DNA from: Dipylidium caninum
Taxonomy: Eukaryota > Platyhelminthes > Cestoda > Cyclophyllidea > Dipylidiidae
Length of the DNA stretch: 64,000 bases
Assembly (NCBI GenBank): GCA_017562135.1
Contig: QEYB01000654.1
Span: forward strand, 310,001 to 374,000
Reading direction: 5' to 3'
Positions 28,401-62,704 of the stretch are shown here, piece after piece. Every line of letters begins with the position of its first letter. Position 1 is the stretch's first letter. The notes beneath the pieces are model-generated. The model worked only from the letters and a program-made list of their open reading frames with translations, searched no databases and had not been told where the DNA came from. The translations under genes and the position numbers were made by a program.

Positions 28401-31400
28401 CTTCCACCATTTGTCCCTTTTCGGCTACTTTAATTTATGTCAAGTGGGGGGGGGGGGCAGAGAAGAGCATTTAAAAGTCATTTTCCACTTGATATTACAC
28501 TTCACCTCTTTCTCTCTCTTTTTTTTCCTCCCTTTTTTCCCATTAGACGAGATTGTCAAGACGCTGGGCGAGGGCACCTTCGGGAAGGTCGTCGAATGCA
28601 TCGACCACCACACGTAAGTGCGTTCGGGTCATGCACACACACACACACAGAAGCACACAGAGGCAGGCACACACACGTGTGTACAGCCCGTGTCCCGTCC
28701 AATCACAGTCGGACGTTGACATGCCCAACTGTCGTCGTCCAAGGTGGGAAAAAAAAGATTAATTCACTGCGATGACGGCGGCGATGGGGAGTGTTCTCCA
28801 TCTGCCTCCTCCCCCTTGGGGACGCCTTCGCCAGCGCCGGGGCTACTCCCGTCGCCCGGTAGTTGTCTGCATGCTCCGTGTGTGGTGGACACGAGGTGGG
28901 CGAGGTGAAGCCCCCATCGGGTCACTTGCACCATCTCTGCTTTCCCCGCTGCCCCAATTACACTTGGATGTAACTACACACTTGTGGGGAAAAGGGCTTT
29001 TTCCCCGCCTCATTTTGGTTGTTTTTTAAGCCCCCGGAGACAGTCTGGCGGTGGTTGACCGCTCGCAGTGGCGTTAGAGGGGGGGGGGGGGACGACGTCT
29101 GAGCTGTCCGTGTGTCGAGGCGACACTCGAGTGACGGGCTGCCGAGCTCTTCTCGGTCGCCTTCTTGGAGCATCCGAGAGGCGAAGTTACCGTGGCGCCT
29201 TGGAACCTCTGAAACGAGCGCTTTTTCGTCCAGTCTCTCTATTCAACTGCAACCGAACGAGATGCACTGCTACCTGTGTTTATAAGATCGAAGGGCACTC
29301 TTCTGGCTCACCTTTTTTTTTAACGAAAATCTTCGTGTTTACAGCCTACTTTTTTTATTTTATTCCCTTGTTTTTGCGAGTTCAAATTGTCTTGTGACGC
29401 AGCAGAACAGGCCTCGAGAAGTGCTTGGCGAGGCATTCGACGCTGGATCTACCAGCAGAAAGAATGCCTCCCCACGACTTCCCTCCGACAAGTTGAATAT
29501 CGTCAAGGCGCCTCGTCGCGAGGGAGGAGTTGAGGACGACGACTGTGGAATAATCTGATCCACACACACACACACACACACCGAGAAATAATTGTGAATT
29601 TGCCTGTAAAGTGGGAATTCACCACGCGAGGCCACGACTGTGTTGTCACCCTCGACATGTGCTACAATGAGTGCTAAGGTGGAAGAAGGAAAAAAAGAAA
29701 GTCGCGTTGGCCTCGTATTATGCCCCGAGCGAAGGAACAACTGACGCAGTGACAGACGACCGAGCGACGACCGCATGGCGGCTCGACGAATTAACTAATC
29801 TTTTCTGCAGGAGGACATTTCACCTCCACTGCCTCCTCCTCCTCCTCCTCCTCCTCGTCTCCTCCTTCTGCTTCTGCTCCTTCTCCTTCTCGTCTTCTCT
29901 TCCTTCTTCCGCTCCTTCCCTTCCTTCTCCTTCTCTTCCTTCTCCTCCTCCTCCTTCCTCCTTCTCTTCCTTCTTCTTCTACGCGTCCACTTGATGTATT
30001 CCATCGGCAGAGCGATTTATTTTGCGAATTATTTTTTCTTAGAGAACAGAAAAAAGCGATGGTTACCAAAATGATGTTATGAAAGGCGTTGAATCGTTTA
30101 CTTACTCTGAGTGGAGATTTTTTCCCCTTTAAGGAGGCTTATACCACTCGCTCAGCCCGTTGGCAGAAGGTCGCAGAGATGAAATTTTACCAAACCTGAA
30201 TTTTGTCTCCTTTTTTTTTCAATAAAATGTTTAAAAATTGGAGGGATACGAGAGCCTGTGTAATTTATTTTTATCTTTGTACTTTTCCAACCACGTGATT
30301 GGTCGGCCCCTTTTGTCTGTCCGTCCGTCCGCCGGTCGGTTGGGTCGAGTGTCCCCGCGTGAGCCCAAAAAAGGCAAAAAGGGGCAAGACGCTGTGGACG
30401 GACGGAAGAGACGCCTCCTCCCGCCCTCAGCCTCGGGTCGGGGGGGGGCGGGGGGGGAGAAGGGGAGGGGAGCGGAGAGGGCAACACAAGTCGTCAATCC
30501 GCTTTATCATCGCCTTTTTTTTCCCTTTTTTCATTCTCTTACCAGGGACACACGAATCGCCCTGAAGATTATAAAAAATGTGGACAAGTACAGGGAGGCG
30601 GCAATGTTGGAGATCAACGTCCTCAACTTCCTGCGTGATCGCGATCCCAACGATGAGTAGTGAGTCCTCCTCCGCCCCCACCGCCCCACTTGACCTCGTA
30701 CTCACGCTGAAATGCCGCTTTTGTTTTCTCGCCCCTCCCCCCTTCTCCCTCCCTCCAGCCTCTGTGTCAGACTGCTCGACTGGTTCGACTACTTCGGGCA
30801 CATCTGTCTCGCTTTCGACATCCTCGGTCTTTCAGTGTTCGACTTTCTGGTTAGTCGGCCGCTTCTCTCCCCCCTCCCTCATAATTAAACAGTAATGCTG
30901 GCGTCTCCTTTTTCTCTCCCCTTTTTTATTTGTTTATTTATTTATTTTTTGACCATAACTTTTATAATTAACTTGGAGACGCGAGTCGCGTCATCCACAC
31001 GCCGCCTTCCGCTCTCTCATGTGGTCTGTGACACTGTCGAGAAGACGGGTGGAGGGCGGACCTCCCCCCCCCCTCCTCCCTTCCCCTCCCCTTTTGATAT
31101 CATCTGCGGCAGCGACCCGCGTCGTCCTCCCAGGCCGGTGGGATGATGGCCGTCTTCCTTCGTGCCGCCCAGACGTTGGAATAACAGGCCAAACAGTAAA
31201 AAAAAGCGCTCCATGACACATTGACAGACCAGACGCATTTGTAGGTCTCGGGTAAGCTTTGGCCAAATTTTCGGTTGGTTGCGTCGAGATCCGCCTCCTT
31301 CTCGCTTTTCCCCGCTGCCGGGTGACTGATGTGCCCGCGCTCTCCCAGTAGACGCCAAATTTATCAGCCTTTTTTGTCTCCTTCTCCTGGGCAGAAGGAG

Positions 31401-33145
31401 AACAACTACGTGGGCTACCCGATAGAGCACGTGCGCCACATCAGCTACCAACTCTGCCACGCGGTCCGTTTCATGCACGACAATCAGTTGACACACACTG
31501 ACCTCAAACCGGAGAACATCCTCTTCAATCGCTCCGACTACATCTCCGTGCACAATCGGAAGAAACGACGCTACGATCGCATTGTCAAGTGCTCCGATGT
31601 GCGTCTCATCGACTTCGGCTCGGCCACCTTCGACTACGACCACCACTCACCATCGTCTCCACCCGCCACTACCGCGCGCCTGAGGTCATCCTGGGTCGGT
31701 TGTTCCCCCTTTCATCTCCCTCTGTCTCTCCTCCCGCCCCCCTTGCGCCTCTTCCCTCCCTGCCCCGCCCCTCCCCCCGCCCGTATAACCTGTGATGGCG
31801 TCCCGTTTAGAGCTCGGCTGGTCCCAACCCTGCGACGTATGGTCCATCGGATGTATCATCTTCGAGCTCTACACCGGCTACACCCTCTTTCAGGCGAGTT
31901 CCTGCGCTTTTATCTTTCTTTTTCTTCTTGTTTTTTTTTTTCTTTTAAATACGGACAGTTGGAAGGACGGAGGTTGGGCTTTGCCACTGCTTGAATAACA
32001 ATTTTTTTTGAGTTGAGTGACAATTCGTGTCGCATTTGTAGACTCACGACAACCGGGAGCACTTGGCGATGATGGAGCGAACCCTCGGCCACATTCCCTA
32101 CCGAATGACTCGTAAATCACGGTAGGTGTCCTCCTCCCCCCGCCCCCCCACCCCACGCCCCCGCCTTTTGTCCCCACCCCACCGGGCTTCGAGGCGTGGA
32201 GCGAACGAGTTCCCCTCTGCCCCGTTTGGTGGGCAAATCACGAGTTGATCCACTTCATGCGACGCCTGACACATCCGAGGGGGCGGACGCCCGGGCGGGG
32301 GCGGAGGGGGGGGGAGTGGGGCGCGCCGGCAGTCGGAACGAGTTTTGTCCGTGTCAACACGGGCCCACAACGCGGACAGCGCCGCCGCCGCCGCCTCCCC
32401 TGCGAGGCTTGCTTGGCGCTTCGGGGGTTTATTTAACCGCAATCTATTTAATCATAAGAGAAGAAAAAAAAAAGAATTATTGTCCTTGAATCTCTCTTTC
32501 TCTCTGGCTCGCCTGATGAAATAGGCGTATTTACTGTCGCATGGGGAGTTTATTTTTGTCAATCTTGCGGTGGAATACTACTGAACAAGTAGTAAGTAGG
32601 TCCTACTTTTAATCACGGGCATACCCACTGTGGTTCTTTTCATCTCCGCACTTATTACAACACAAGATACACGCCCCGTGAGAAGGCTTTTCCCCTCCTC
32701 CCCTTTCCAGCCCCCAAATCAACAGCCGTCGCCCCCCCTTCCCCTCCTTCCTGCCCCCACGTTGCAGTCGAGGCTTCATTAGAGTTTTCGACGAAATTGG
32801 ACTGTTTTGAAAATCTTGACATTATAACTGCAACCAAACCACCGAGTCGCCCACATGTTGTGCGTGGGATTCGCCAAATTAGTAGTATCGCGAGAGGAGC
32901 ACTATTGTGAGGGGGGGGGGCGGGGGGGCTCATTTGCACGGGGGAGGGTGTCGGTAGACGTGTGATGTCCCCTCCTGGCTCACGCCTTCTCTCTCCCCTA
33001 CCGCCCCCTCAGCACGGGCTTCTTCTACCACGGCCGGTTGGATTGGGATTTCTACAGCCCCGAGGGGCGTTACGTCCGCGAGAACTGCCGACCCCTCCTC
33101 GTGAGTGCCTCGCACGCACTCCTCTGTCGCCCCCGCCTTGCCTCC

Positions 33146-34912: not shown

Positions 34913-36228
34913 TGTCACATTCAAATTTCATTTATTTATTATATATGGTTTTGTGACAAATTCAAAGTAGACAAGGTCAGATTCAGCTATCAATATTTTT
35001 TGCTTATAGCCGCATATATGTAAATATTTAGGCAGGGATGATGATGTTTTAAATTGATATTCGCAACGGTTTTCACTTTTTGGGTCGATGTATCTGCGAA
35101 GAGTTATTTGTCTCACATGGCCTACAAGAATTTATCGTTACATTCAAGTTCAGAAACCTCATTCATTCGCTTAAGCAATTAGAAACTAAGAAGTCATTCT
35201 ATCTATTATTATTTCCTCAATAAGTTGCTACTATTTTTGCGCTCCAGAAATTTTGTCGTGTCACCCCGCAGTATGTGAAAAAGAGGGTAAACTTCTTGTT
35301 TCTTACACAGCTAGTTCAAAAAAAATGCTTTACCACTCGACCTTTTTTGTTCGGGCCGCTGGAATTATCGTCGTGATATATACGAACTGGTAAATGCAAT
35401 CGTCGCATACTTGCGACTGCAAGTTCAGAGAGGCATATACATTTTGATTCATCCGCAAGTGCCAATGACTACCGCATGCAGTTTACAATATACTAAATCC
35501 TTCCTTTTATTTTGAGTGCACTAAGGTGCAATGCGGTGATGTCCGTGTTTCTACTTTCTCCAGAAATACCAGTGTTCCATTCAGCCTGTTCTGGACTTTC
35601 ACTCATTTCCAAACAGGCAGCATTTCGAGATAACTGTGTAGTTTGATATACCACTGATATTCCTGGTGTAATGAGGCGGAGAGCCGGGTAGACATTCTCT
35701 CAATCCACATGAACACTTGGGACGTTTCGACAGATGTAAATTCCCTTAATCAAATTAACACCTTCTTCCGATTGGCTAAAACTGCTCTTCCCTCTTAAGT
35801 GAGGCTCACAAGAGTACATCGGTTTGCCAGTCGCAATATTCCTTCTTCTCATCCACAATTTCCCGAAACAATTCTCTCACAGTTCCCCACATGCACAGGA
35901 AGCCACTCCCAAATGAGGCTTTTAATGCAACTCACACAAGGGCTATCGTAAATGCAGCGTGTTCTCGTGTACTGACAAACACACGCACACACACACACAG
36001 GAGACGCACATCAGGATAGATGGAGAAGTGTTTGGGCAGATATGCTTGCAGATCTGCCTCTTCGTCTCGCATGGTACAAAAGGAAAATCAAAAGGCATCA
36101 TTCATGTCCTCACTGCAGAGGAGGCGAAGGGATGCAACACATGGCACGGCAGGGCAGAGCAGGGCAGTGGAGGGCAGGACAGGTCGGAGTGGGGGGAAGA
36201 AGTCACGAGAACGTAGGGTGCAGAGGCC
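34913..36228. other. Intergenic, mostly empty
   Basis: A minus-strand open stretch at 34928-35116 following an AG has a faint CUB-like look (a Cys, then ICGYKQKILIAESDLVYFEF), but it ends in a stop 16 bases before the Ly6 start and is not called. A short CA run sits near 35979-35998. The 3' UTR of the minus-strand tubulin should lie at the high-coordinate end. Confidence 0.4.
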
Positions 36229-38346
36229 CTAGCATTCGCAGTCATCATCGTCGTTGTCCTCCTGGACGCATCCACCGTGTTTACCGAAGATGTCGTCGAG
36301 ACCACAAGTGAACATGTCCTGGGCGCCGCAAATATCTTCCTCCTCCTCTTCCTCCTCTTGGCGACACGGGTTGTTGAAGCGTTTGTCAACTATCGGAGGC
36401 TCCGCGCATTCCGCGCCCGTCTTGAAACAGTCTGTAGGCGAGCAGAGGAGGCGATGCTTAGATCCGGTCGCGCATGCCCTGACGCCAGTGTCTACACAAC
36501 CCCCTTTTAGGCATTTTCCCGACCTGCGGAGGCGAATGTCGGCCTAATCTCTCGCCCCCAGGCGGCTAACGATCGGGAACCTGCTCTTGTTGAGGCGTCC
36601 GGACAAAAGCCAATTGGTCGGTGAAACAAAATTTACCAAGTCACCGACCTACCAGCCTAATCACTACGAGCCGACTCGAGTGAAGACGGCGGGGCGACCT
36701 ACTTTCAATGAAGATGTAGTCGTTCATGATGGCCTGCACGTCTTCGGCGCACTCGCAGAACTCAGCTTCCTCCATACCCTCCTGGAGGAACCAGTGGACG
36801 AAGGCCTTCTTGGCGAGGAGGGTGTTGAAGCGGTGGAGGATGCACTTGAGCGGCTCCACCACCAGAGTGGAATTGTAGATGGCGGTCAACTGGCGACAGG
36901 TTCTGCCCATGCCGCTTTGTTTCACAACCGCGGGTGGTCGCTCCACCACGCCCACCTTGAAGCCGGTGGGACACCAGTCGACCAGCCCCACAATGGAGCG
37001 TTTCTTGAAGATTTCAATGCTGTCCGTAATCTCTTTCACCGGCACGTCGCCGCGATAGAGCAGGGCGCACGCCATCATCACGGAATTCCGCGGATCGCAC
37101 ATATTCATCTGATTCTCCTTCTCGAAGCACTTCAACGTCAACTCGGGCACGGTGAATGCTGCAACGGCGAAAAATGTCACATCCGAGGGGGATTTGCCCC
37201 TCCCTCCTCGGCGGGGGGATGGGCGGGCGGGAAATCCGCCCGACTGGGGTGGGGTTTACCTTCGTGCGACATCACATCGGCGGTGCAGAGCGGCGCGATG
37301 CCCAGTTGGAGGTAGCGGAGACGCGGGAAGGGCACCAGGTTGGTCTGCAACTGCAGCAGCGTGGCGGTCACCGGCCCCTCGTGGCGCAGGGTGGCGGTGA
37401 AGCCGCTGGTGGCCTGTGCAATGACCCGGTTGAGGTGGGAAAACGCGGGCCGCTCGATGCCCAACTTCTTGGTGCAGATGCCCGTGAGGGCCTCGTTCTC
37501 GCAGAGCACCGAGAAGGTGCTAATCTCGTCCAGGGTGCTGCAACACAGGATGGCATTGTAGGGCTCCACCACACAACAGGACTTCTGGTGGTCGGGGAAG
37601 ACGGCGATCTCGATTTTGGGCACCTTCAAGAACTCCGTGTCGAGTAGTTCGCCAATACCTGCAACGCGAGGAGGAAGACAAGCCGAGAAGCATGCGGGCC
37701 GAGCGCCCCGCCCCGCCCCGCCCCGCGGGGCGGCGACGCCTCACTGCACTTACGACAGGCGGTGCCGCCGCCGGTCCCGCCACCGTAGGAGTGGTGGAAG
37801 AGAATGGCCTGCAGGAAGTCGGTGTGCTCCACCTCCTTGCGGATGGAGTTGATGGACGCGTCGACCAGCACCTGGGGCACCCCGTAGTAGCCACGGCCAA
37901 AGTTGTTCGCCATGTCCTCCAACCCGCTGATCAGACCGCGCGGATTAAACATGGTCCGGTAGAGGCCGCAGCGAATTTCGTCTAGACGGAGGAAATGCGA
38001 CCAGCGTCTCGGTCATGCGAAAAGGGAGGTAGCGGGGGGAGGGGGTGGTGTGCGCCACTCGGAGGCGGAGAAACCTCGAGGGTGGCTGGAAGTCGGGGGG
38101 CGGGACAAAAGACGCACCAACCACGGTGGGTTCCGTGTCAATGATGGCAGTACGCGGCACGTAGCGATCCTTGTTGTCGACCATGAAGAAGACATTGCCC
38201 GACTGCTTGTCGTAGTCGGTCTCCGCCGACGGGTCAATCAGCATTCCGTCGGGACCGACGCCGTGTTCCACAGCCATCAACTCCCACACGGCCTGGGAGA
38301 CCTGGGTCCCGCACTGGCCCACGAACACGCTTATCACCTCGCCGAG
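36229..38346 (-). CDS. Divergent alpha-tubulin-like protein with Cys-rich acidic tail
   Basis: Five exons: 38346-38118, 37981-37754, 37658-37260, 37158-36703 and 36431-36229, about 504 residues against roughly 450 for alpha-tubulins. Alpha-type landmarks: VFVGQCGTQV, GGGTGGG (canonical GGGTGSG), VEPYNAIL, QTNLVPFPR, MCDPR, ALLYRGDV, VDWCPTGFKVG, FVHWFLQEGMEEAEF. It would pair with beta-tubulin and bind GTP. Departures: no Lys at the K40 position, Glu254 replaced by Gln (codon 37353-37351), Asp251 replaced by Thr, and no EEY end. The last exon encodes a tail of about 67 residues with nine Cys, a Glu run and the end DDDDCEC. The first exon found starts in phase 0 with LGEVIS and no ATG, so the start codon is in an unseen upstream exon (many vertebrate alpha-tubulin genes have an intron just after the ATG) or comes from a spliced leader. 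It lies head to head with the related gene at 41.6 kb. Confidence 0.88.
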
Positions 38347-41300
38347 CTAAGGGGAGAGCAAACAACGTCAACGCCGCCGGGACCCGAGGGACCGCCGGGG
38401 CGGGGGGCTGATAAAAGCTAATCTCCGCGAGGCGCATCGCAGACTGTGGGGTGGAGAACGGGGGGGGGAAGTGGTCGAGGGGGAGAAGGAAGGAAGGGGG
38501 TGGGGGGAGACGCACCGGCATTGTCAGGCCCCGATGAATGCACGCACGCGGTGGGAGGAGAACTCGCCTATTGATTTGTCGCCCTTCAAACGCAACGCTG
38601 TCACGTGGACGGCGGTCAGCGGTCGGGCTGCGGTGCACGTGGACTCCCGTCCACGCCGCGGAGGCCACGGGAATTCGCCCCAGAGGCGGTCAGGCGGGGC
38701 GGGGCGGATGGGCGGAGGCTGAAACGCCCCGAGGAATAGAAGGCCTCGCCGGAAGGGCCAACGCTGGTCGTCTGACGTGGCGACGGCGCCGGGGCGAGGG
38801 CGGAGATGACAGCTGTGGACCGGCGGCGCTCAGAGGGCCACTTCCGGCTCAGCCGCCTCGGATTTAGGGGAGGCGCCGCCGGGAGTGCGGAGTGAGGACT
38901 GCAGGTGTTCTCCAAAGGGCATTTTTTGGCGTGAGATTCGTCAGCAGGGCGATTTGTGGCGTCAGTGAGTGCCCTGCAGTCCCTTTTTGTTACTCCGGCT
39001 CACCACGGGTCGGTGCGGTTACCCGCCGTCGCCTTTCGCCGCCGAGACCTACGAGCCGAGGCCGCCGCCCGACCTCCTCACAACGGAAGACTTGAGTCTC
39101 GACCCGTAGAAGCTGAGCGGCCTCCTTTCCTCCACTCAAACGGGGAGTCGGTCGTTGAAATGGCGGAGAGGAAGGTCGTCCGCCGTCCTCACTCATCCCG
39201 CCTCAGGCGAGGCGGTGGAGAACGAGGTGAGACGGCGGTCCCGTCGAAGGTGACCGCTGAGCGGAATGGAGGGCGACAGGGCGACGTGACGAGAGCCCAC
39301 CGAACGGTGGGGATGAACTCGCTGTACCTGGCGGGAGGACGTCCCGAGGGGGAGGGTCGCCTTATCTCCCAACTGCGGTCAGCCGCACCACCACCACCGC
39401 TGCCGCCAGCATCGCTTCCATGCTGTGGCGCGCGAGCTTCTGGGCGGCAACCCTCGTGTTGTGCGCGGAGGCTCGGGACATCGTCTGTCGCAACGCGAGC
39501 CGCGGGTGCGATTGACGAACGCTCGAGTCGACGCAACGCTGCCACCATGGCAACCCTACCACGGAACGGATTTGAGCGTCCCACCAAAACCACCACATCG
39601 TTTTGGGGCCAATTACCTCGTCTGCGTGTGTGTGTTGATGGCGACTCGTATTCCACGTAGACACGTCCCCCTGCCACGGGGGCGGAGGGGGCGGAAGGGG
39701 AGGGCTCGGGGGGCGAATTCTCGAAGCGGCATTGAATGAGACGCTCTACATCCAGCAACCTACTGACGGAAAGCCGGCCTAGCGGCCACTAAAACGACTC
39801 CCATTCCAGGGTGACACACGAAGTGGACGACGAAGTCCCCTCCGACGTCCGCGACGGTCCCAGTCCGTGCACAGAAGCGCAAACCGCCGAGGCGGCGCCG
39901 CCCGCTGAATCGCCAGTCGAGCGACGCACGAGTCACCCCCCTGGCGACGCCCGGAGGCTATTCTGGGGGCCACGCACGCGACTGGTGGAGGTCTTCGCAC
40001 CGATGGAATGCGCGCCGCGACGCTTTATCGATTTTTCCCACTCGACCAATGGGAGGAGGGCAGGGCGAAACGTGTCTTCGCTAGACTTTCCGACCGCCTC
40101 CAGGCATGCATGTGAGTGATGACATTCTCTCACCTCCGCCCCCGACACCCGTCCAAATGCTCCTTTATTTTTCACACAATGCTTAAATTCTCAAGGTAAA
40201 AGTATTTTCTCCGAGCGGCTGCAATAACCTCGAAGGGAACTTGAATATCTACTCCTTTCCCGATTTTAATACTGAGATTATTGTGGTTAGGCAGTTAACT
40301 TTGTCCATTTACTTGACAGTCTAATAGGGTTTTTTTAATCAGTCGTTTCTGTCGTCTGTATTTTTCTGCTACCCAGCCCGCTTGCCTGCCATCGCCCTAA
40401 CTTCATCGTTCCTTTATTTCGCTTTATTTGGTTCACTTTCCCCGTCCCCGCCAATCTGATCCCGCTCCCTATTTCAAATAACGCTTACACTTTCATGGAA
40501 TGAGTAAGTTCTCTGTGCGGCCGTAATGACCTTGAAGGAAATTTGAGCGCTCATTCTTTGATCGATTTTAACGTTAAAATTTTTAATTGATAATTTAATT
40601 CTGTTAAGTAAACGACTGTTAAATGTGGCCGTGTATTCAGTTGAATAAGTATTTTGAGGATTTCTTGAGGTCTACCGCGCTCACCCCCGTGAGTTTGTAT
40701 TGCGTTTCAACTTTTTCCTGTATTTCGCTTTACCGGGATTCACTTGTTGCCCATGTTGACGTTTTCTATGCGATATTTCGTCATCTCAACTACGATGGCG
40801 GTTTTCACCGCTCCCAGGCACAATTCTGTGGCTTTCCGCGGCGGCAGAGAGAAGTCCCCTCGTCGTCCGACGCTTTCCCATTAGCGGCCCTCCTTGGTCG
40901 CCAGTTTTAACGCCGCCTGCCCGTCCTCTGCCGCAGCCGAGTCCTCCAGCATTCCTTATTCAGAAAAAAACAGAAATTTATAGTAGACTGCCCACGCACC
41001 AGTGTATGTTGTCCAGCGTAATCTTCTGGCACTGCAAATGATCTCGCCCTCGTTCGGTTAGCCAGCGTTTCCACATCTTGTCGCTCTACCTCAGGTTCGC
41101 GGCTGTCGCTGTGAACACCTCCACCAGGCGAGGGAGCGCACACTGTTAAGCGCCGAGTCTGCGCATTGCCCGTTCGACGACCATTTCTTTTGGAAAGGAA
41201 TCGTTTTCTGGGATAATTTGACACTTCGAGCGCCCAATGCGGTTAGTCGTCTAGGTTAAGTGAGTGTGGGAGATTCGTTCCTGGTTAGTGCGCTGAAAGT

Positions 41301-41648
41301 CCGCCAGACTTCCCCCTCTGCGGATGAAGCGCCGTCCCCGGCTCCTTGGCTGCCCTCCGCTGAGTGGGTGCCCCTCCTGTTGAAGCATTAAAAACCGGAC
41401 CAACATCGGAAAGGTGTTTCCTTCACAATCCCTTTCTCCAGCAAAGGTGACTCAAGGCGTAGAGACACCGAGGTTGCTCCCATCAGACTGTCACGTCTGA
41501 CATTCTCCGGCGAAATTGTGGCCGCCTGACAGTGGGGTGATGGCTCGGTTGGGGTAGCGGGGCCGGACGGGTGGGCGGGCTTGCGACGCGGCGCGGTGAA
41601 GGAGGCGGCTCAGGCTTCACGGAGAGTGAACCGCCTTGTCCCCTGCAG
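38347..41648. other. Shared upstream region between two divergent tubulin-like genes
   Basis: 3.3 kb between the first recognised exons of the two head-to-head genes. The first half is GC-rich with many CpG; the second half is AT-richer and holds a diverged tandem duplication. Both missing start exons and any shared promoter should lie here. Several short open frames occur but none resembles a family. Confidence 0.5.
40140..40810. repeat. Diverged tandem duplication, about 305-base period
   Basis: Two neighbouring units align by eye: TCTCCGAGCGGCTGCAATAA near 40208 with TCTCTGTGCGGCCGTAATGA near 40510, then CGATTTTAA in both, and later TATTTCGCTTTA in both (near 40413 and 40723). Spacing is constant at roughly 305 bases. 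Extent is approximate. Confidence 0.5.
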
Positions 41649-44600
41649 GGTGAATTGGTGCAGATCTTCGTCGGCCAAGGCGGCGTTCAAATCGCGGACG
41701 CGTGTTGGGAGCTCTTCACCCAGGAGCACTTTATCACCCCGAGCGGGGAGTGCAACGCATGCATGTGCGGCCAGGAGCAGGGCGACTGCGACTGCTCCGC
41801 CTTCTTCAGCCTCACCCAACGCGGCTTCTACGTGCCCCGCACCCTCATCGTCGACACGGAGCCCTCCGTCCTCGGTGCGTCCTCCCCCCTTCGCCACCTC
41901 GCTCCAACCTTTCTCCCCCCCCCCTCCCTCCCCCTCCGAAACGACCCTCTTCTCAAGGACAACATTTTGGCCAATCTGAGGCTCCCACGCCACCTCCATC
42001 CACGAATGCTGCCTCCTTATTGCACCGACATCTGCTGCGAAGGCGGTCCGCAATAAAATTGTACTATAGAAATGGCATATCCCAGCGGGTTTATATGCCC
42101 CCCCCCGCCTCCCCCCTGTGGGGGGTGAAGTTATTAGGCTGGAAATTATAAAACGGGCGAGGAAAATAAGATGAGAGAAAGCAAAATGGGCCATCGGTGA
42201 CACTTGTGACCCCATCCATCGCCTGCGGTTGCGCGACCTCGTATGACCACCGCATTCGCGTCCATTTTAACACAACCGAACCCGCTTGGGAGGCGGATTT
42301 CTTGTTTGGACCGGCATTCACGAATACTTGGGGCTGCAGCTCGAATTCCGCACTCGCCGCTCTTGCATTCCACCGCGTCATCGAAGGCGACCGGCGGCCT
42401 TCCACGAGACGCCTTGGCGATGCACAACATCGAGCCTTCTGTTTTTTCACCAGCGGATCCATTTCCAGAAGCCTCAGCAGTGTTTCTCGAGGCTTTTTCA
42501 GCTTCGCCGTGAAACAATTTGAACTGTCTGATCTCGCGGAAAAATAGAACAAAAAGGGGGCTCGAATGACGGAAAACACTCCCGGGAGATGAGTAAGAAG
42601 AAGAAGAAGAAGAAGATTTTCAACATTTACAAATTAGAAAACCGGACGCAAGTCGCAATTTGTCGCGCTCGGTTGCATCTGAACCCACACCAAAGATGCC
42701 AGTTTCATAGTTTACAACGTAAAATGAAAAAAAAGAACAGAAATGTAGACTGTTTACTGAGAGAACGCATTTGCCTTTCAGATGAAATCCGCGTGGGTGT
42801 TTATAGGAACCTCTTCCAGCCCAACAGTCTCCTCAGTGGCAGTGAGGACTCGGCGTCGAATTTCGCCCGCGGTTTCTACGGCACGCCATGCTCCCTGGTC
42901 GAGGCCTCCTACAACTCAATTCGCCACTTGGCCGAGGCCTGTGACCTGCTGCACGGCATCATGTTCTACCGCGCCTACGGCGGAGGCACCGGCAGCGGGC
43001 TGGGATGCAGTGAGTTGGGATATCGGCCTTTCCAACCACGCCGAGAGTAGACGAAGCTCCTCTCGACGGGGTGGGGGGATTTTGGCCTCTCGTCGTGGCT
43101 CTGTTGTCCGGAAGGTACCTCTGGACATACGCTATTTTCTCGTCAAAACATCGTCCACCAACAGTGATGGTGAAGCTCCTCGTAAAATTCGACTCAAGCA
43201 GCTTGGCGGAAACACTTCTGCGTTTCAGTCCATATTTTCAACCCTGTGCTTAAATTGATAGACACTCCTAATGTACTATGGAATGCGTCAAAACTCTAAA
43301 TCGCCCCTGCAGAAGCGTCAGCAGTCGGGAGATAGAAATACGCATGAAAGGCGCCTGCCTCAGATGGACCGCAGACTGATGAGTTCCATCGAATGGGAGC
43401 AAAGAGACATTTGAGGGGGAACCGTTGGGCCTTTTCAGTTGTCAGTTAGTATTCACAGTAAGGTGGACACGGAGGAGGACGGGTACCTTACAATTTAGTG
43501 GATTTGGAAGCAACTTATGGTGTTGTCTTCGGAGAAAACACAAGACACGGGAATAATTTTTGATTGGTCAAAATACCTTAAGAGCGCACCAATGAAATGT
43601 GACCATCGGGTTGATTTATTTTATTGACTCCGAATGAAGTTCTCGTCTTCTTTACGCCATAAACGACGCTCAGGACTGCTTCAACACACCGCGGATGAGT
43701 TCTGCAAGACCTCGCGCATTGATTTTGGCGTGATTCCCGGGGTGACGCTGTCCTCGGGGCCCGTGGAGCCGTACAACGCGGTGCTGGCATTGCAAGTGCC
43801 GGTGGAGCAGGTCAACCTTGTCAGCCTGGTGGACAATATGGCGTTGCAGCGCATCTGTTCGTGCCTCCTAAAAATTCACAAGCCCAGCTTCACCTCCCTC
43901 AACCGCATCCTCGCTCAGGTGAGCCTGCACACCCGTCGTTGTGCTGTGCATTGCAGCAGTGAGGCGACTACGGGCTGTCAAACTCTCCTTCTCCCTTGCC
44001 ATGCCAGTGCGTAAGTGGCCTGACGTCGACATTTCGATTTCCGGGACCGACGACCATCACAATGATGGATCTGTACACTAATCTTGTGCCCTACCCTGAC
44101 GCCCACTTCGCCATGATCGGATTCGCGCCTCTCTTCGACCTCGAGACGGCATGCAAAGGTCGTAAGTACGCCACCCCGACGCATTCCACTCTGTGGTCAT
44201 TCACTCGCCCCTTTCCTCGCTCATCAGCTCGCGCGTTCATTGTCTTTGCAATGAACTGAGCATCGCCGTCCAGACGGCCATTTACTTCTCGCCCTGTCAA
44301 CTTTGACGCGGTGGGAGACTCCAGGGGGGGGGAACCTGGTGGGGGCGAAGGGGAAGGATGAAGGAGAGAGAAACTGTTGGTGATAGCCAACTGAATCGGC
44401 AGTCGGAAAGCCACATCGAAGAAGAATTTCAAGCGGAGCTTCCTCCCTCCACTCTCATTCCTTGACACCTTCTCTCTATCTTATTTCTCTACGTCCCGTC
44501 ATGGTAATCACGCGACAAAAGCCGGTTTGAATTAGCGTGGAGGCTACGAAACAACCGTTGAATTTTAGTGGGCAACAAAAAGCGCAATTCTAATTTTTTT

Positions 44601-47600
44601 ATGATATTCATCAGAAACATCTTCCATTGGCATTTACAGCTTTCTGCCAACGACTTGCTTAGTCATATGGGCCTAAAAAATCTTCCCTTCTAATGTTATT
44701 ATAGGATTCAAAGATTATCATAACATCATTTTAGTTGCAATTATAATTTCTTTTGAAAGTACTTTGCGATTACGATATAGGTGATAATAAAGGCCGAGAA
44801 ATTTCGGCTTATATCGGAATAGATCTTGGTAAAATTATATATTGTGGAGAATTTATTTAAATTGTCGAAAGTGATGGAAGCTTTCCGAGGCGATCCCATA
44901 CGCGTCCATTTGTTTTACTCCATCTTTTGTCGTACGCGAGCATTTAAACACTGCTGCAACAATTTTCGTTGGCATCTCTGACTCTCTGCCAACGAGCCAA
45001 GATTCCACATATGCCGTTTAAAAAACTTTGTTTTGAGTTGGCAAATTACTCGAAGTCCGTCATTACACTGATTTGGTGGTACTAATTTCTCTTATAAATA
45101 CTTCGTAACTACGGGAAAGGTGATAATTCGTCGGAATATTAAATGAATACGGAGTTTAATGTGGTAACAGGCCGTATAGTGCGGAATTTATTTACCTTAT
45201 CAACAGTAATCGGAGCATTACGTGGCCGCCGATTGTTTTTCCTAATCATTTACTGTGGTAATTGTTTTTGCGCAGCGGTGGCCTTAGGAATAATTTTTAG
45301 TTTAGATTCAAGTTCACGAATAGTTCTGGGCGTGGGGATCTGAGTCGACAGCCGATTTCCTCATGTTTTTCTCATCATTATAAAATGCAGCCGCGATCTT
45401 CCACTAGGTACCTTGGCAATACGTTGTATTAATCTTCAAAAAAAATTTTGGAAACAACATTAAGTATTTATTTTTAGCAGTTGGTCCACGTCCGAATGTC
45501 TCATTTATATTCCCCGAGGCATGTTTAGCTGCGCTAATATGCAGTTTGACCTTGTACAAGACAAGCTGATGAAATCTCTTTTGATTTCCGATTAGTTTCG
45601 GTGAAGACAAAGTAAGTAAATAAAAATGGCGTATGAGCACAAAAAAATTGTGAAATGCATAATAATAATACCGCTAAGATTTATAAGTCAATATATGGGG
45701 CGCATGTTGCAATGCGTCCCCTTCAGTCGCAGTCGAACGCAGACTAAACACAAACGCCCGTTCCATAGTTTACCGAGCAATGAGGGCAACGTTGGGGCGT
45801 CCTGCGCCGCCACTACTACCCCTGCTAGGCACCGTTTGCCTGCAAAGCGAGTGCTGAGCATTTCTCAGTAGCGAGGAAGGTGCTTAGGTGACGGCGAGAT
45901 TCTACGCGATGTGGTGACTTTACCCTCACATGTCTGCATCCTCTCCCACCAGAGCTGGACACAACGCAACTGACCGAGTCAGTCTTCTCCCCCGAACAAT
46001 CAACTGGTGCACCAGCGCGAGGAGGAGGTGAACATGTTCCTCACCTGCTGCCTCTTCTACCGCGGCAACACTAGTGTCCGCGACGTCAACACGTGCATCG
46101 ACGAGATGCGCTCCTCCAACCGCCTCCCCTTCGTCGACTGGTGTCCCACAGGCTTCAAGGTCATTACTACTGAGCCCTCTTCCTTCTCTCCTACTCACTC
46201 AGGTTTTCCTCTTTTGTATTCTTGGCTCGCTGTTGATCTGTTTAGCGTAAGCTTGAATTAGACGAGACAAGAGACCCCAACGACACGGTACCACATTTTC
46301 ATATGGTATGTGAAAGCCTCGCGAGGTAATTTGTTTTGCCTGGACCTTCGGGGGGAGGTTTGTTTGTCGCCTGACACGGCAGCTCTTCACACTCGAGCGC
46401 ACTTCTGCCTCAAGGTGGGCATATCCTACCAGCCAATGACAACCATCGAGGCGAGTCGCATCGGTCCTTCGGACACCTCGGTGATCGCCCTCCACAATTC
46501 TACAATCTTCAAGACCCCTCTGCAGGAGATCACCCAGGCGGTGGAGAAATTGTTGATACGCAACGCCTTCCTCCACTGGTACAGGGGAGAGGGCCTCGAA
46601 AGCGACGAGATTGCCAACGCTCTAGAGGGCTTGAAGAAACTTCAGGCCGACTACGACTCTGTAAATCGACTCAGGGTGAAGATCGCCGTCCACCTTAGCC
46701 TTCAACAATCTGAAAATCGCGTCTGTCTGTGGCTTTGTAGTTTATAAACACAACGATGGAGCGAAAGTTCTTGAAGGGCACCTCGTCGACTCAGTCGAGG
46801 GAGAGCGAAGAGACGAATGCCCCGCCGGCCAGACTGGAGGACAAGGTGACTTTGTCGTTGGTCCCCTCTCTTCCCCGCACCCCGCGTGCCCACTCTCACC
46901 TCACGGCGACTTGACGTTGTAGGCGCCGTACCGTGAAAACTGCGAGTCTCCAATATCAACAACTCGGCGAAGGGTGAACGTACGTTCTTGAGGCAGCTCG
47001 GGCTGTTGCCTGTTCCGTGCAGTCCCCTAATTTGCTTCCGGTCCATCCTTACTTCCTTCATCCCCCTCTTCCTCCTCCTTCTACCCATCCTCTTCGTCCC
47101 CTGCTCCTCCTCCTTCCACTCTTCCTCGTCCCCCCTTCATAAATATCTTCTTTCTCCCCATCCAAGCCGTTCTGCCGGAGGGAGTATGACAAGAATTACA
47201 AGGATTCGCGGGAGGTGTCACAATCATCTGTGAGTTGTCACATTAGCCAGTCCGCACACACACACACACACACACACACACGCCTTTATTACCGTCCCGA
47301 CTGGCCACTCGCGACGAGCGGAGGCGGCAGTCAGGACCTGACACTGAGTCGGGAGGACGAGGAGGCGCGTCTTCGCCCCAAAATGGCGCAGGATGTGTGG
47401 CGTCGCGCTCCCCTCGACCCTCCCGCTGCGCACTGCCGCCCCGACCGGTCCCACTGCTCTCACTGCCTCCTCCCCCAAACGCATTTAGCTCTGCTCCGAG
47501 AAGGGCTCGCCACCTCGCTGTCGCAGGGAGTGCCGACTGCAGGATTACAGTTCCCGGAGGCCACCGGTGAGTCCGCGTTTCCCCGCCGTCGCCTCCCCGT

Positions 47601-50600
47601 CGTCAATTAAACCATAGAGAGAAAATATATATATATATATGTATAAATTGCACACTGTAGGTCATAATACCTACCTTGAGGGAGTTTTTCATGTGTGCCG
47701 CATGGAGGCCTCAAGAGTTGTGTGACGACTTTTGACGAGGCGCTCGTACGCTTGTTTACCTCCTAGTCATTGCTGAATAGCGCTGCGCGAAGCGGGCCAG
47801 TGAAGAACAGAACGCAGAACTGCTGCGCCTGTGAATCGGGAAATGCGACTAATCAGGAGGCCTTCCCCTCGGTAATGCCCCAATTGCATTGAGCGTCCCC
47901 GCATACTACTTAAATGCCTTAACAAGTAGGTAGGTTTGACCATGTGGTTTCTCTCTCTACTTGAAGTTTGATTTTGAAGGAGGAGGAGGAATAGGTGGAA
48001 GGGCTTGTTAACGAACAGCAACTCGCATGGTGATTTTCTTTTCCTTCTTGGCAGACGAGCAGTTTGAAAAGATCCTCGACAAAATGTGAATGTTTCCCCG
48101 ATGGCTCCGACACCACTCCTGTGAGTTGTCTCCCCTCAGGTCCGAGAGCTTTGTTACCCCGTACTCGACTGGCTGCCTAGCTGTTTCACTTGCAAGGCGG
48201 CCCACCGCCACTTCGTCGCAGGTGTAGCCTCAGTTTTAGCACCTTTGAAAGGCGACTAATGCGAAGTGAACCCACTTTTAAGCGCTGAGTCGTGTCATAC
48301 AAGCGGAAGCCAGTCATTTCAGACCCTCATGAGGTTAAGTTGTCATCAAAAGTTTACTCCGAAGGAGGTGATTGATAAACCCTGTCGGTTAATTTGTCTC
48401 CTTTGCCGGAGCTTTCACACCGACCACAGCGACAAAATCCAGCGTTCACGACGACTGGACTGTGCAGATCTTCTGCGCGTCTCCTTTTGTTTGGTGGCGG
48501 TAACACCGCCTTGAGGTGCTCCCCTAACCTGTCAACGCCAGTTGAGGTTGAGTCTGTGATGCTTTGTGGTGTGAGGAAAGCGGTGTAAATGAAGACGATG
48601 ATCTGCTTGTAGATGTTCCTCGATGATGCCAATGACGGGTGCCGATGCACGACTTCTGTATGTCCTTTCAATAGTGGACAAAATGCCCTGGTCCGTGCCC
48701 TCACAAGCTTTCTCTCGGTTTCAGAAGCACGAAGAAACGGAGAAGAAATTGGAGGATGACGAAGAAGCCGACATGGACTCGCTCTGTTCCGACTCGGACT
48801 ACCACCAAGTAGGCATGGCTTTTTGATTTCAGATTAAACCGGCGGACACGTAGAATCCTTTTATTCCCTCTTTGCTCTCTTCGCCGCCGGGGTGGTGGTT
48901 GCGACTCAGATGCCCAGACGCGATCCACTTCTCCGCCTTTTTACACGGCATAACGTTGATGAGCCGAGGGAGCCCCACTCCGATGTTTGTGTGGCATTTA
49001 GGGCTCACTAGGATTTTTGATTAATCCAAGCCAAGGCTTCCATAAACCTTGTAGGACGTCCCTAATCCCCAACAGCGCGAAACAGATACTTGGGAATCGT
49101 TGCAAGAGCACGAGATGACGGAACAGCCAATCAATGAGCCCCTTAAAAAGGTACCTCTTTTCACTCTATTTACGCAGCTAACACACTTTTGTATTTCAAA
49201 ATTGCGGCTCAAAGCTGTTTATCTTACTACATGCCTCTAAAATAACACAGGTGGGAGCTCAATTAATCATATCTTCGAAGTAACTTTTGTCTGCGTTTAA
49301 ACTGACCGCCCTGTTAGTGAACCAATCAACTGCAGAGTTTAGTTTGCGCTCTCATTTGATTGGTTTTCTTTACTCCCAATGAGACTTTTGATTGACAGGC
49401 GCGTGACTTCTTCTTCAGCCCACGACTTGAGTTTAGCGAGCGCCAAGCACATTTGACGAATGATGGGGAGAAAACCACAAACAGTGGTTAGAACAAATAG
49501 TAGTTTTCAGTCGGGATTAACGTAAAACGCAATCTTGGAGAGGCTAATTGTTAGCCAAACCTACTCCATAGCGGGAAATCAGGAAGAAGACAGTCAAGCA
49601 ACGGAGTCACTTAATAGAAGGATGGCGTTTATTCCCACTAACTGTTCTTGATATACTTCAGAATATCGCTTATGGAGGTAGCGCTTTGTCCTCGACGGAA
49701 ACCGGAGCCAGTTGCGTAAGTCCCCAGAGCGATGCTTCTCCGTGAACCTCTTCCAGATATCCCATTATTTATGCATCCAGTACTTTAACATTCATCCCAC
49801 TCCCAAAGAAGCCCTTCTTACCTTACAGGTCTGCTATCACGGTGAGCACGGCCGCTGTGACGTCTCGTTGCGGAGGGCATTTGTGAGTTGAGCACTTGTA
49901 TTAGTCAAATTTGCCACTTCCACTCCGAAGTGGCCATTAGTTGTGCCTAGTGAGGAGCTTTTCATAATTAGCCGTCGGGTTGAGGGGAGAGACGAAGTCA
50001 TCTCCCTCGAATGGGGCATTTTTTGTCCAAATTTCTGCCAAAAATTCAACAAACTGTCCCCTGGGCTTGGGGACATAAATTGAGGCGTGAGGAGCCTCGT
50101 GTTGCTTTAAATGACAAGGGTTTGGCACTCAGGTAATGGTACCATCACAGCAGGTTTTGTTCTCCCTTCCTAGACAATTATCGACAAGGCTTACGAGGCC
50201 TGCCGACGGAGACCCTGTCCCGCTTCGGTATGGAAAAATTTGTCATGATGGTAGTTTCAAAATGTGCTTAATTTTTCTAATCTTTTCTTTGTGTCTGTGT
50301 ATGTGTGTACATAGCAAGGCAAACAGAATGAGGAGGAGCCGGAGGTCACCATAAAGGCCGACTTAGATTCGTACCCAACAGTTTCGTTGAGTCAAAAGGT
50401 ATGTTACAAGTCCGCTCTAGTGCCAATTTGTCATAAAGCATTCGATGTGTGGCATTCTGAGTTGTCACCTGCTCCCGTTTCCCTCATACGCCCCATTCAA
50501 ACTGAGGTTGTGACAACTTTGACGTGTCAGACCGTCCTTGATTCCCTGCTGCCTCTCAGTAGGGGGTTTTAGATTTGACGCAGGGCATTGGTTGCGTTCC

Positions 50601-51761
50601 ACTCCCTTTGCCCGACATCACTGACCTTTTGTCTCATCCTGCCTTAGAACTTCAAGGCTACTTTATCTTTTGTCCGGTCTGAGGCCTGGGTTGAGGCGAC
50701 CGAAGTCCTTTTGAACGTGGAGCTGACGTAAACTACTAATTTTTTGTTTTTTGGTGCGTGCAGGAGGCTCATTGCAGCGGATTCAAGGAGGAGGCGACTT
50801 CACAGGTAATGTGGAAAAGGAAACTTCACCTTCCTTCGCACATATTTTCCTTTGCCATTGCATCGGATCGAGAGTATTTGTTCTTACCCACAGCGAACAC
50901 ACGGGAAACGGAGCACAGGTTACGGGTGTCGCAATTACGAGGAGAGGCACAACATCGAGGTGGACATGGACGGGGCGAAACACCGTAGACGTCAGCGTCG
51001 ATTCACGCCCACACCGCTGCCCGAGGACACCTCGTCGACTTCCATGAACTTTTCGGCTCCCACCTCGTCGTCCGCGTCTCTGTCGAAGGTGCCCCGCTTC
51101 CTCACTGTACGCTCGCCCAAGTGTGCTTGCAAGGCGAAGACTTCCCACTCCAACTCCATGTCCACCACGGCCAATTTGGCCACGTCTGCGCTGTGAGTGC
51201 CTCAGCGTCTGCCTCCGTCCGCCAATCACTTAATTTTAGCTAATGAGGCTCCATGGGATCGGGGACTCCACTCAAGTTACTTGAGTCCTGGCCAAGTAAT
51301 TTGGCCGCGCGATGCTCGCTTAACGTCGAGGCAAGCGCCTCGATGACAGCATTCCGACGAGTTGTTCAGCCACAATGCTTAAGAAGCCGCCCAGATCGTC
51401 CATTCTGCCTTGGGTTAAAAGTTTAGTTCTCTCACTCGCAATGTACTTTCTTTGTAGACTAAATGAGGAGGAGATTATGCGGGAGTTGGAGATAAGTGTG
51501 AAGAGCGAGTTGTCTAACGTGCTGGACGCCCTCGGCCACGTGGTGCTACCACCACCACCAGGCACGCCAATCTACGAAACGAATCAGCACCATCAACACG
51601 ATCGTCATCGTCACCAACACGACCGTCATCATCGTCACCACCACCACCGGCATCATCACCACCACCACCATCATCACTGCCACCGACATAACCGCTGCGA
51701 TCGCAGCCGAAGTCAGAACAGGACGAGGAAGCACCAGTCACAGCTCACCCCAACACCCTGA
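41649..51761 (+). CDS. Divergent alpha-tubulin-like protein with about 443-residue C-terminal extension
   Basis: Core exons: 41649-41874, 42782-43009, 43674-43918, 44008-44161, 45953-46159 and 46415-46660 (about 435 residues). Landmarks: IFVGQGGVQIADACWELF, GGGTGSG, VEPYNAVL, TNLVPYP, VDWCPTGFKVGI. The K40 loop is replaced by a Cys cluster, Glu254 is Asp (44068-44070) and Asp251 is Thr. One surplus C at 45989-45993 breaks the frame between FSP and NNQLV. Tail exons: 46741-46845, 46923-46979, 47167-47229, 47489-47566, 48055-48120, 48725-48808, 49055-49150, 50174-50227, 50315-50398, 50764-50805, 50894-51192 and 51458-51761. The first ten are all multiples of three in phase 0. The tail is rich in Cys, Arg, Ser and acidic residues and ends in a His-rich segment. 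No ATG in the first exon (GELVQIFVGQ). The tail could instead be a separate gene starting at ATG 46756; continuous phase and the 65-80 base gap favour one protein. Confidence 0.82.
44610..45225. repeat. Diverged tandem duplication in tubulin intron, about 345-base period
   Basis: Unit one (from about 44615) and unit two (from about 44965) share ordered words: TTGGCAT then CTGCCAACGA, TAATTTCT, AGGTGATAAT, and GGAATTTATTTA versus AGAATTTATTTA near the end. It lies in the intron between the exons ending at 44161 and starting at 45953. Confidence 0.5.
47255..47281. repeat. (CA)n microsatellite
   Basis: Perfect CA run just after the exon ending at 47229 of the plus-strand tubulin-like gene. Confidence 0.85.
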
Positions 51762-51967: not shown

Positions 51968-53033
51968 CGGTACTGGATGCGAATTGACTAATGAAATTAC
52001 GGAAAACTTCTTTGGCAGAAGCATTTGTAGGGATCAAGTGACCGCCGGGATGAACAAAAGTGGTTTGCGGAGAGGCGTAAACCGGCAACAGGTCTTCTGT
52101 CATTTCTGCATCGAAGGTAGAGATGAACAGTTTGGGATCGGTTCAACTTATCATGAGAGGGAATAAATAGAACAAACCGGCAGGGATGACTTTGTCTTCT
52201 TTGCCGTAGACAAGAAGTGTGGGCATTTCGATGGGCACCTTGTAGAGCGAGGAGTGCAGACTGGAGCGACTCCTGAAAGTAGCGACTAAGATGGCGAACT
52301 TCACAGTAGGTGCATTCCAATCTAAAAATGGAGAGAGATCAGTTGAAAAGTAGAAGCGGGGGAGCAAACCTTCTGGGTGTTGTTCCATGAGGAGCTGGAG
52401 CAGAGTGGCGAAAGCGGCACCCTGACTGAAAGCAAATATGCCATCGAAGGGACCCTGGGTTTTGAGTGCGTTCTTGACCACTTCAACGGACTCCTCAAAA
52501 CCCCGCAGAAAATCTGTGTATTCGTTTGCACTGAAAGAGTCATCAGGTCTTGAGAACCACCAGCCGCGGCCTTGGTCGGTGGTTCCATCGGGACAAGGAA
52601 TTTTCAGTGGAGAATCGATGAAGACTATTTAAAATAAGATGAATACAATAATAAAACTAGTCGTAAACCTACCAAAATCGCAACTATCTTTTAGAATTTT
52701 TCGAAAGGCACCGGATTTCTCACGGAACCCATTTCCTGTTTGTCTTAAAAAATAATTTTCTTTTAAAATAACACTTCCAATGAAAAAAGTCTTAAAAGCT
52801 AGATGAGTTTCAAAGCGCCATCACCGAGTTGTACATCATACTAATTAGAACAAATTATTTTTGATACCGCATTAATACGGTAAGGCTGTTTCTAGAAAGC
52901 CCCGTTTTTAAATACGTGAGCAGAACGCACTGGTAGCGGTACAAAAAATAACTGACGACTACCGGTATCCGTGTAGGCAAAGAATCTATAAAGGGTTAAT
53001 GAGATAGAATAAATGTCCAACCCTCAACGTCAT
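51963..53033 (-). CDS. OVCA2: OVCA2/FSH1-family serine hydrolase
   Basis: Six exons: 53033-53022, 52985-52963, 52743-52673, 52624-52370, 52321-52178 and 52105-51963, 215 residues (human OVCA2 is about 227). It is an alpha/beta-hydrolase esterase. The oxyanion region reads ILCLHGYRQTGNGFREKSGA, followed by GRGWWFS as in the family. The nucleophile Ser is in AFSQGAA, the acid Asp in GKEDKVIP and the His in HPGGHLIP. The first exon holds only four codons (M-T-L-R) and the second is 23 bases; both are needed to rebuild MTLRILCLHGYRQ. Introns are 36, 219, 48, 48 and 72 bases. The stop codon overlaps its own AATAAA and the gene converges with the tubulin-like gene. Confidence 0.92.
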
Positions 53034-62508: not shown

Positions 62509-62704
62509 GTCGCCGCGCCTTCTCCCACGCGGGCTGCCCACCTAATCCCAACCGAAATCGATTGACCCCGCCTCCCCCGCCCCCCCGGCCCTGTCACGTG
62601 TCAAACCGCACGACGTGGGCCGCCCCGACGACGCGCCTCGGCTGTCGGAGCGCGGTTGAGGCGCCAGGCGAGACAAAACCACACCTCGAATAAAACAATC
62701 GTCC

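What the first reader, a model, noticed from the sequence alone, without database searches (positions are those of the whole stretch)
36229..51761. Head-to-head pair of highly divergent alpha-tubulin-like genes
Two alpha-type tubulins lie back to back, both far from the near-invariant alpha-tubulin sequence, both without K40 and without a terminal Tyr, and both with long Cys-rich C-termini. Tubulins rarely diverge this much unless they serve a special structure. Flatworm sperm have an unusual 9+1 axoneme, so a sperm or cilium role is a testable guess.
Basis: partly seen in the sequence, partly recalled or inferred. Interest (0 to 1): 0.9.

Follow-up and report, generated by a model that had tools for sequence, protein, structure and literature searches.

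The report
Tapeworm alpha-tubulins lacking catalytic glutamate
Two back-to-back tapeworm genes encode very odd alpha-tubulins; one belongs to an old tapeworm-and-fluke family in which the amino acid that normally makes microtubules use up their GTP and fall apart is replaced in every member found, so these worms may build naturally permanent microtubules.

Summary
Gene A (minus, 36229-38521, 506 aa) and gene B (plus, 41649-51761) are head-to-head, spliced alpha-tubulins, 45% and 39% identical to ordinary alpha, without an aligned K40 or terminal Tyr. A's tail is Cys-rich; B's is long, hardly Cys-rich. B has a one-base frame break in this assembly.

E254, the alpha residue that triggers hydrolysis of the neighbouring beta's GTP, is Gln in A and Asp in B. 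All 12 clade-A proteins found (ten named tapeworms and flukes, one unnamed contig) have Gln, both B relatives Asp; the other 277 readable alpha domains have Glu. A, B and a third gene form one clade with two private introns. A's catalytic loop is rewritten yet conserved, and its own GTP pocket is kept.

In human tubulin E254Q blocks hydrolysis and gives stable microtubules; E254D slows it. I infer natural alpha-tubulins for intrinsically stable microtubules. A sperm role is untested, with mixed evidence; no expression or biochemistry was available.

The parts
38516..38521 (-). Gene A exon 1, coding part (ATG and one codon; M-P)
   Evidence: Donor GT follows; the E. granulosus, Hydatigera and Hymenolepis orthologues have MPLGEVIS at this place
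38118..38346 (-). Gene A exon 2
   Evidence: AG acceptor and GT donor, open frame
37754..37981 (-). Gene A exon 3
   Evidence: AG acceptor and GT donor, open frame
37260..37658 (-). Gene A exon 4, holds the T7-H8 loop with Gln in place of E254
36703..37158 (-). Gene A exon 5
   Evidence: AG acceptor and GT donor, open frame
36229..36431 (-). Gene A exon 6, acidic Cys-rich tail, stop at 36229
   Evidence: the first part of the tail is conserved in E. granulosus P0001
38522..41648 (.). Interval of about 3.1 kb between the two divergent genes; B's start exon must lie here or be missing
   Evidence: No confident start exon found for B
41649..41874 (+). Gene B exon
   Evidence: 90% identity to E. 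granulosus P0121
42782..43009 (+). Gene B exon
   Evidence: 82%
43674..43918 (+). Gene B exon
   Evidence: 83%
44008..44161 (+). Gene B exon, holds the T7-H8 loop with Asp in place of E254
   Evidence: 83%
45953..46159 (+). Gene B exon with a one-base frame break at about 45990-46000
   Evidence: the E. granulosus protein runs through the same place
46415..46660 (+). Gene B exon, end of the tubulin body
   Evidence: 82%
46661..50874 (+). Gene B, unresolved stretch holding further exons of the extension (candidates only)
   Evidence: Weak, patchy alignment to P0121
50875..51192 (+). Gene B extension exon
   Evidence: 63% identity to P0121 597-698, E 4.8e-30, over 50891-51196; the TGA that the tool counts falls at the splice donor
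51458..51761 (+). Gene B last exon, His-rich end and stop
   Evidence: 66% identity to P0121 697-752 over 51459-51629, E 1.7e-12

Best explanation
A and B belong to an old alpha-tubulin subfamily of tapeworms and flukes whose T7-H8 loop, the part of alpha that reaches the GTP of the next beta-tubulin and triggers its hydrolysis, has been rewritten: Gln (A) or Asp (B) in place of E254, with D251 changed in nearly all members. They keep the fold and the pocket for alpha's own structural GTP, so they should still pair with beta and polymerise (inferred). Microtubules built from, or doped with, A would keep GTP in the lattice and not undergo catastrophe; B would hydrolyse more slowly. They would be stable from birth, without K40 acetylation or detyrosination. 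I place them in a long-lived microtubule structure, most likely the sperm, with tegument or sensory structures as alternatives. Shown: sequence, conservation, clade, shared introns, predicted fold. Inferred: loss of hydrolysis, stability, location.
For: 12 of 12 clade-A proteins found have Gln and 2 of 2 B relatives Asp, against Glu in 277 of 295 domains read; the remaining 4 are joins of chimeric models. The loop is conserved within A (85% v 71% overall) but only 47% like ordinary alpha; 4 of the 8 columns fixed in A and fixed otherwise in 115 ordinary alphas lie in its 16 positions, p 1e-4, or p 0.0013 without column 254. Alpha's own pocket is largely kept. A+B+L034 are one clade, 100/99 with three long branches and the beta rows left out, 94/93 with all, and alone of 18 alpha genes share introns at 152 and 285. 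A clade-A model is a full alpha-tubulin. Engineered human E254Q, E254N and E254D microtubules are stable (PMC11893814, PMC8764682, PMC7018511; passages).
Against: No biochemistry or expression. Other loop changes might restore hydrolysis. Hymenolepis A keeps D251. The effects are borrowed from human tubulin, which is only about 44% alike. M-loop, H10 and the S9-S10 loop are also strongly diverged, so normal lattice contacts are not assured. B has a frame break here. Schistosome sperm microtubules are acetylated (PMC3050934), which does not fit a general sperm role for a K40-less alpha.
Confidence: 0.5

Rival explanations
1. One reading: sperm or 9+1 axoneme alpha-tubulins whose divergence serves structure or binding partners; Gln at 254 with its neighbours still allows enough hydrolysis, or hydrolysis does not matter in such a polymer.
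For: Flatworm-restricted among the listed rows; diverged surface regions (H1-S2 loop, M-loop, H10); testis-expressed tubulins in a planarian (PMC6467871); tapeworm sperm have a 9+1 axoneme and cortical microtubules (PMC6733933).
Against: The diagnostic changes gather in the catalytic loop rather than on the surface. Schistosome sperm microtubules are acetylated. No expression data.
Confidence: 0.2
2. Relaxed constraint: a little-used duplicate family that drifts, the lost E254 being one loss among many.
For: Overall identity to ordinary alpha is only 38-45%; the genome holds nine strongly divergent alpha genes, two more of which lost E254 on their own (L024 Val, L031 Asn); B has a frame break.
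Against: Gln is invariant in 12 of 12 proteins while residue 253 next to it varies; the loop is more conserved than the rest of the protein; intact A orthologues occur in tapeworms and flukes.
Confidence: 0.15
3. A and B do not build lattices: they act as chain-ending or capping tubulins, or regulate ordinary tubulin in small amounts.
For: Strongly diverged lateral-contact regions (M-loop 27% and 22%, S9-S10 loop 33% and 25% identity) and large tails.
Against: Complete tubulin fold and largely kept GTP pocket.
Confidence: 0.1
4. For B only: it is a pseudogene in this species.
For: One-base frame break in exon 5; no other B-like copy found in the 106 Mb assembly; no start exon found.
Against: The other tubulin-body exons and the two mapped extension exons are open with usable splice sites, and the tubulin body (82-90%) is better kept than the extension (63-66%) against E. 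granulosus. Relatives are annotated without a break. Draft assemblies make such errors.
Confidence: 0.3

Closest known systems
Engineered human alpha-tubulin E254Q, E254N, E254A and E254D (PMC11893814, PMC8764682, PMC7018511; passages read)
   Same: The same residue replaced, by Gln (as in A) or Asp (as in B)
   Different: Laboratory mutants of an otherwise ordinary alpha; here natural, old, and with a wholly rewritten loop, lost K40 and long tails
Fasciola hepatica alpha-tubulins 4 and 5 (PMC3820024; parts 1 and 2 of 4 read)
   Same: Divergent flatworm alphas without K40; alpha 4 and 5 were not found in schistosomes
   Different: At least 72% identical to the other fluke alphas, so not clade A, which is 42-46% identical to ordinary alpha; the paper does not discuss E254 in the parts read
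Divergent mosquito alpha-tubulins (P0127 Anopheles, P0138 Culex)
   Same: Divergent animal alphas (57% and 60% identity), without an aligned K40
   Different: Both keep D251 and E254 and lie outside the A+B+L034 clade

Membership tests
Alpha-tubulin family (by homology) | Tubulin GTPase and C-terminal domains | tested here: met
   PF00091 and PF03953 above cut-off in the A orthologue P0002 and the B orthologue P0121; PF00091 exons of the window
Alpha-tubulin family (by homology) | Closer to alpha than to beta | tested here: met
   Spliced-alignment scores 942 v 645.5 (A) and 763 v 528.5 (B)
Alpha-tubulin family (by homology) | Alpha-tubulin fold | tested here: met
Alpha-tubulin family (by homology) | Residues of the non-exchangeable GTP pocket | tested here: met
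   Q11, D69, E71, D98, G143-G146, E183, N206, N228 kept in A and B; a few conservative changes such as Y224F and, in B, A99S and N101S. The list of pocket residues is recalled
Hydrolysis-triggering alpha-tubulin (functional class) | Catalytic E254 | tested here: not met
   Gln in A, Asp in B
Hydrolysis-triggering alpha-tubulin (functional class) | D251 of the T7 loop | tested here: not met
   Thr in A and B; Hymenolepis A keeps Asp. Its catalytic role is recalled
Ordinary modifiable alpha-tubulin | K40 and terminal Tyr | tested here: not met
   E and A at position 40; ends CEC and TPTP
Flatworm sperm 9+1 axoneme component | Expressed in testis and located in sperm | not testable with these tools
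   No expression or localisation data on hand

The most novel reading that the evidence does not exclude
Tapeworms and flukes have evolved, and kept since before their split, natural alpha-tubulins that cannot switch on GTP hydrolysis, and use them to build GTP-locked microtubules without dynamic instability. Evolution would have fixed the very substitution (E254Q) that biochemists made as a GTP-cap mimic, at a residue whose change to Ala is lethal in budding yeast.
Probability: 0.35. Interest if true: 0.88.

Novelty: new variant of a known kind. Interest (0 to 1): 0.72.

Why it matters
Outside clades A and B, E254 was present in every readable alpha-tubulin domain retrieved here (277, from animals, plants, fungi and protists), and the paper searches found its loss only in engineered tubulin (open-access library only). 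A natural, conserved replacement would show that dynamic instability can be dispensed with in a dedicated set of microtubules. It would give a way to study GTP lattices in a living animal, and it points to tubulins of medically and veterinarily important worms that were not seen in other animals here.

Tried and rejected
Considered and rejected: (1) That A and B are chance or misread frames: rejected by orthologues and splicing. (2) That they are beta- or other tubulins: rejected by scores. (3) That a lost E254 is usual in divergent alphas: in the sample it is not; the two mosquito alphas keep it, and so do four other strongly divergent genes of this genome (L026, L028, L029, L032). But two more (L024, L031) lost it. 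(4) That clade A is the described Fasciola alpha 4/5: rejected on identity. (5) That B ends near 48.8 kb: my first model; the E. granulosus orthologue shows that it runs to about 51.76 kb.

Led nowhere: the first structure job (A2, Hymenolepis A) gave pLDDT 55.1 and was not used. The alignment for B (A3) was not accepted, and the second and last job went to P0076, so B was not folded. NCBIfam, a prokaryote-minded library, gave nothing for three proteins. Paper searches on sperm, testis and tubulin labelling gave no direct evidence on where these tubulins act. No dN/dS could be computed because no orthologous DNA was found in what I could reach. The exons of B between 46661 and 50874 are not settled. 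The spliced aligner also put a frame break into a spurious upstream extension of A, copied from the N-terminus annotated for E. granulosus P0001; the hand model starts at MP.

Limits: the 256 proteins are what three searches listed (at most 120 rows each, of 2992, 1924 and 5310 matches), so they lean towards relatives of A and B. The tree of 46 rows (18 genome genes, 25 of the 256 proteins, 3 beta rows) was picked by hand; L026, L031, L032 and the beta rows were left out of the second tree (40 rows). L034's place beside A is weak (85/42 and 86/40). No Schistosoma, planarian, Macrostomum or monogenean name appears in the listed rows, but that does not show absence. The 18 gene models come from my own simple aligner, some with frame breaks that may be its errors.

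Full report
WHAT IS THERE. The window lies in contig C56 of an unnamed 106 Mb genome, by its closest proteins that of a taeniid-like tapeworm (gene A is 93% identical to E. granulosus P0001 and to a Hydatigera fragment). Gene A runs on the minus strand from an ATG at 38521-38516 to a stop at 36229: six coding exons, GT/AG introns, 506 residues, open throughout. Gene B runs on the plus strand. Six tubulin-body exons lie between 41649 and 46660, and the E. granulosus orthologue P0121 (757 aa) shows a C-terminal extension whose last two exons map to 50891-51196 (63% identity, E 4.8e-30) and 51459-51629 (66%, E 1.7e-12), ending at about 51761. The start exon of B and the exons between 46661 and 50874 are not settled. 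B has a one-base frame break in exon 5 near 45990-46000; the E. granulosus protein runs through that place. Among the matches scored for P0121 in the own genome, 82-90% identity occurs only at this locus, so no second copy was found.

HOW DIVERGENT. Identity to an ordinary flatworm alpha is 45.0% for A and 38.7% for B, over 429 positions each. The K40 position holds E in A and A in B; neither protein ends in Tyr. A's tail (69 residues) has 8 Cys and 22 Asp/Glu. The B tail in E. granulosus has 9 Cys in 287 residues, so 'Cys-rich' fits A but hardly B.

In a microtubule, alpha-tubulin E254 sits against the GTP of the neighbouring beta and triggers its hydrolysis (PMC8764682, passages). In A it is Gln and in B Asp; D251 is Thr in both. 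I read this residue in the 256 proteins listed by three database searches. A motif read-out found 295 domains: 277 Glu, 12 Gln, 2 Asp and 4 others (2 Trp, 1 Tyr, 1 Ser), all four at joins of chimeric gene models; 3 proteins gave no motif. An alignment read-out gave 236 Glu, 12 Gln, 2 Asp, 4 gaps, and one Lys and one Leu from misalignment. All 12 Gln are clade A: E. granulosus, Hydatigera, Hymenolepis, Mesocestoides, Schistocephalus, Sparganum, Dibothriocephalus, Fasciolopsis, Opisthorchis (two isoforms), Calicophoron and one unnamed contig. The two Asp are the B relatives of E. granulosus and Schistocephalus.

FAMILY HISTORY. The genome holds 18 alpha-type genes by my spliced alignments of 28 fetched stretches plus the window (a gene seen in two stretches counted once): nine ordinary to moderately divergent (66-97% identity) and nine strongly divergent (38-53%). 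Two of the latter, L028 and L029, are near-copies and may be one locus. E254 is kept in 13 of 18 and replaced in five: A (Q), B (D), L034 on C515 (D), L024 on C422 (V), L031 on C117 (N). In the tree of 46 rows clade A has support 100/95 and A+B+L034 94/93; with L026, L031, L032 and the beta rows left out (40 rows), 99/95 and 100/99. L034's exact place beside A is weak (85/42 and 86/40). The order inside A follows the worms' groups, flukes apart from tapeworms, which suggests an origin before that split. Independent of the sequence tree, introns at alpha positions 152 and 285 (phase 1) occur in A, B and L034 only, 3 of 18. The simplest reading is that E254 was lost once at the base of this group, and separately in L024 and L031.

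MECHANISM. Human tubulin with alpha-E254Q forms microtubules that keep GTP throughout, are stable and grow without catastrophes (PMC11893814, passages). E254D hydrolyses about four times more slowly and hardly ever shows catastrophes (PMC7018511, passages); E254N is inactive too (PMC8764682). In budding yeast E254A is lethal because microtubules lose their dynamics (PMC7018511 citing Anders and Botstein). If the flatworm proteins behave alike, they cannot be general tubulins; they would be kept for structures that need not fall apart, while the ordinary E254 genes serve mitosis. This chain is inferred from residue identity. The strongly diverged M-loop, H10 and S9-S10 loop leave open whether their lattice contacts are ordinary.

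WHERE. Against it: schistosome sperm cortical microtubules and flagella are acetylated (PMC3050934, passages), which A and B cannot be at K40; but no Schistosoma clade-A protein was listed. The tegument, with its microtubules (PMC12162102, passages), remains possible. The 1612-base contig that codes for all of P0076 without introns is probably a transcript, the only hint of expression (inference).

KNOWN OR NEW. Alpha-tubulin membership by homology is met; membership in the hydrolysis-triggering class fails on its key residue. The Fasciola paper of 2008 (parts 1 and 2 of 4 read) describes five alphas, all at least 72% alike, so not this clade. The searches listed no paper on a natural alpha-tubulin without E254; subscription literature was not searched. 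I call it a new variant of a known kind.

Noticed in passing
L031 (G000:C117:397500-407000) and L024 (G000:C422:47000-55500): Two further divergent alpha-tubulin genes outside the A/B/L034 clade have also lost E254 (Asn and Val). Asn is another substitution known to block hydrolysis in engineered tubulin.
   Followed up: partly
L034 (G000:C515:102500-111500): A third member of the A/B clade with Asp at 254; only about 350 residues could be modelled, the end is missing from the model.
   Followed up: partly
L028 (C523) and L029 (C832): Two near-identical divergent alpha-tubulin genes on separate contigs; may be one locus assembled twice.
   Followed up: no
L023 (C300) and L035 (C828): Two divergent beta-tubulins (70.9% and 62.8% identity to ordinary beta), possible partners of the odd alphas.
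   Followed up: no
G000:C41:102500-172000: Cluster of five ordinary-type alpha-tubulin genes and one beta gene.
   Followed up: no
window 36000-40000: GC-rich stretch (0.60 and 0.66 in 2 kb windows); gene A has 82% GC at third codon positions.
   Followed up: no
window 687-1262 (+), 31326-31991 (+), 52146-52628 (-): Neighbouring exons match alpha-galactosidase, protein kinase and FSH1 serine hydrolase families.
   Followed up: no
window 58738-62541 (-): A 1268-codon open frame without any Pfam match.
   Followed up: no
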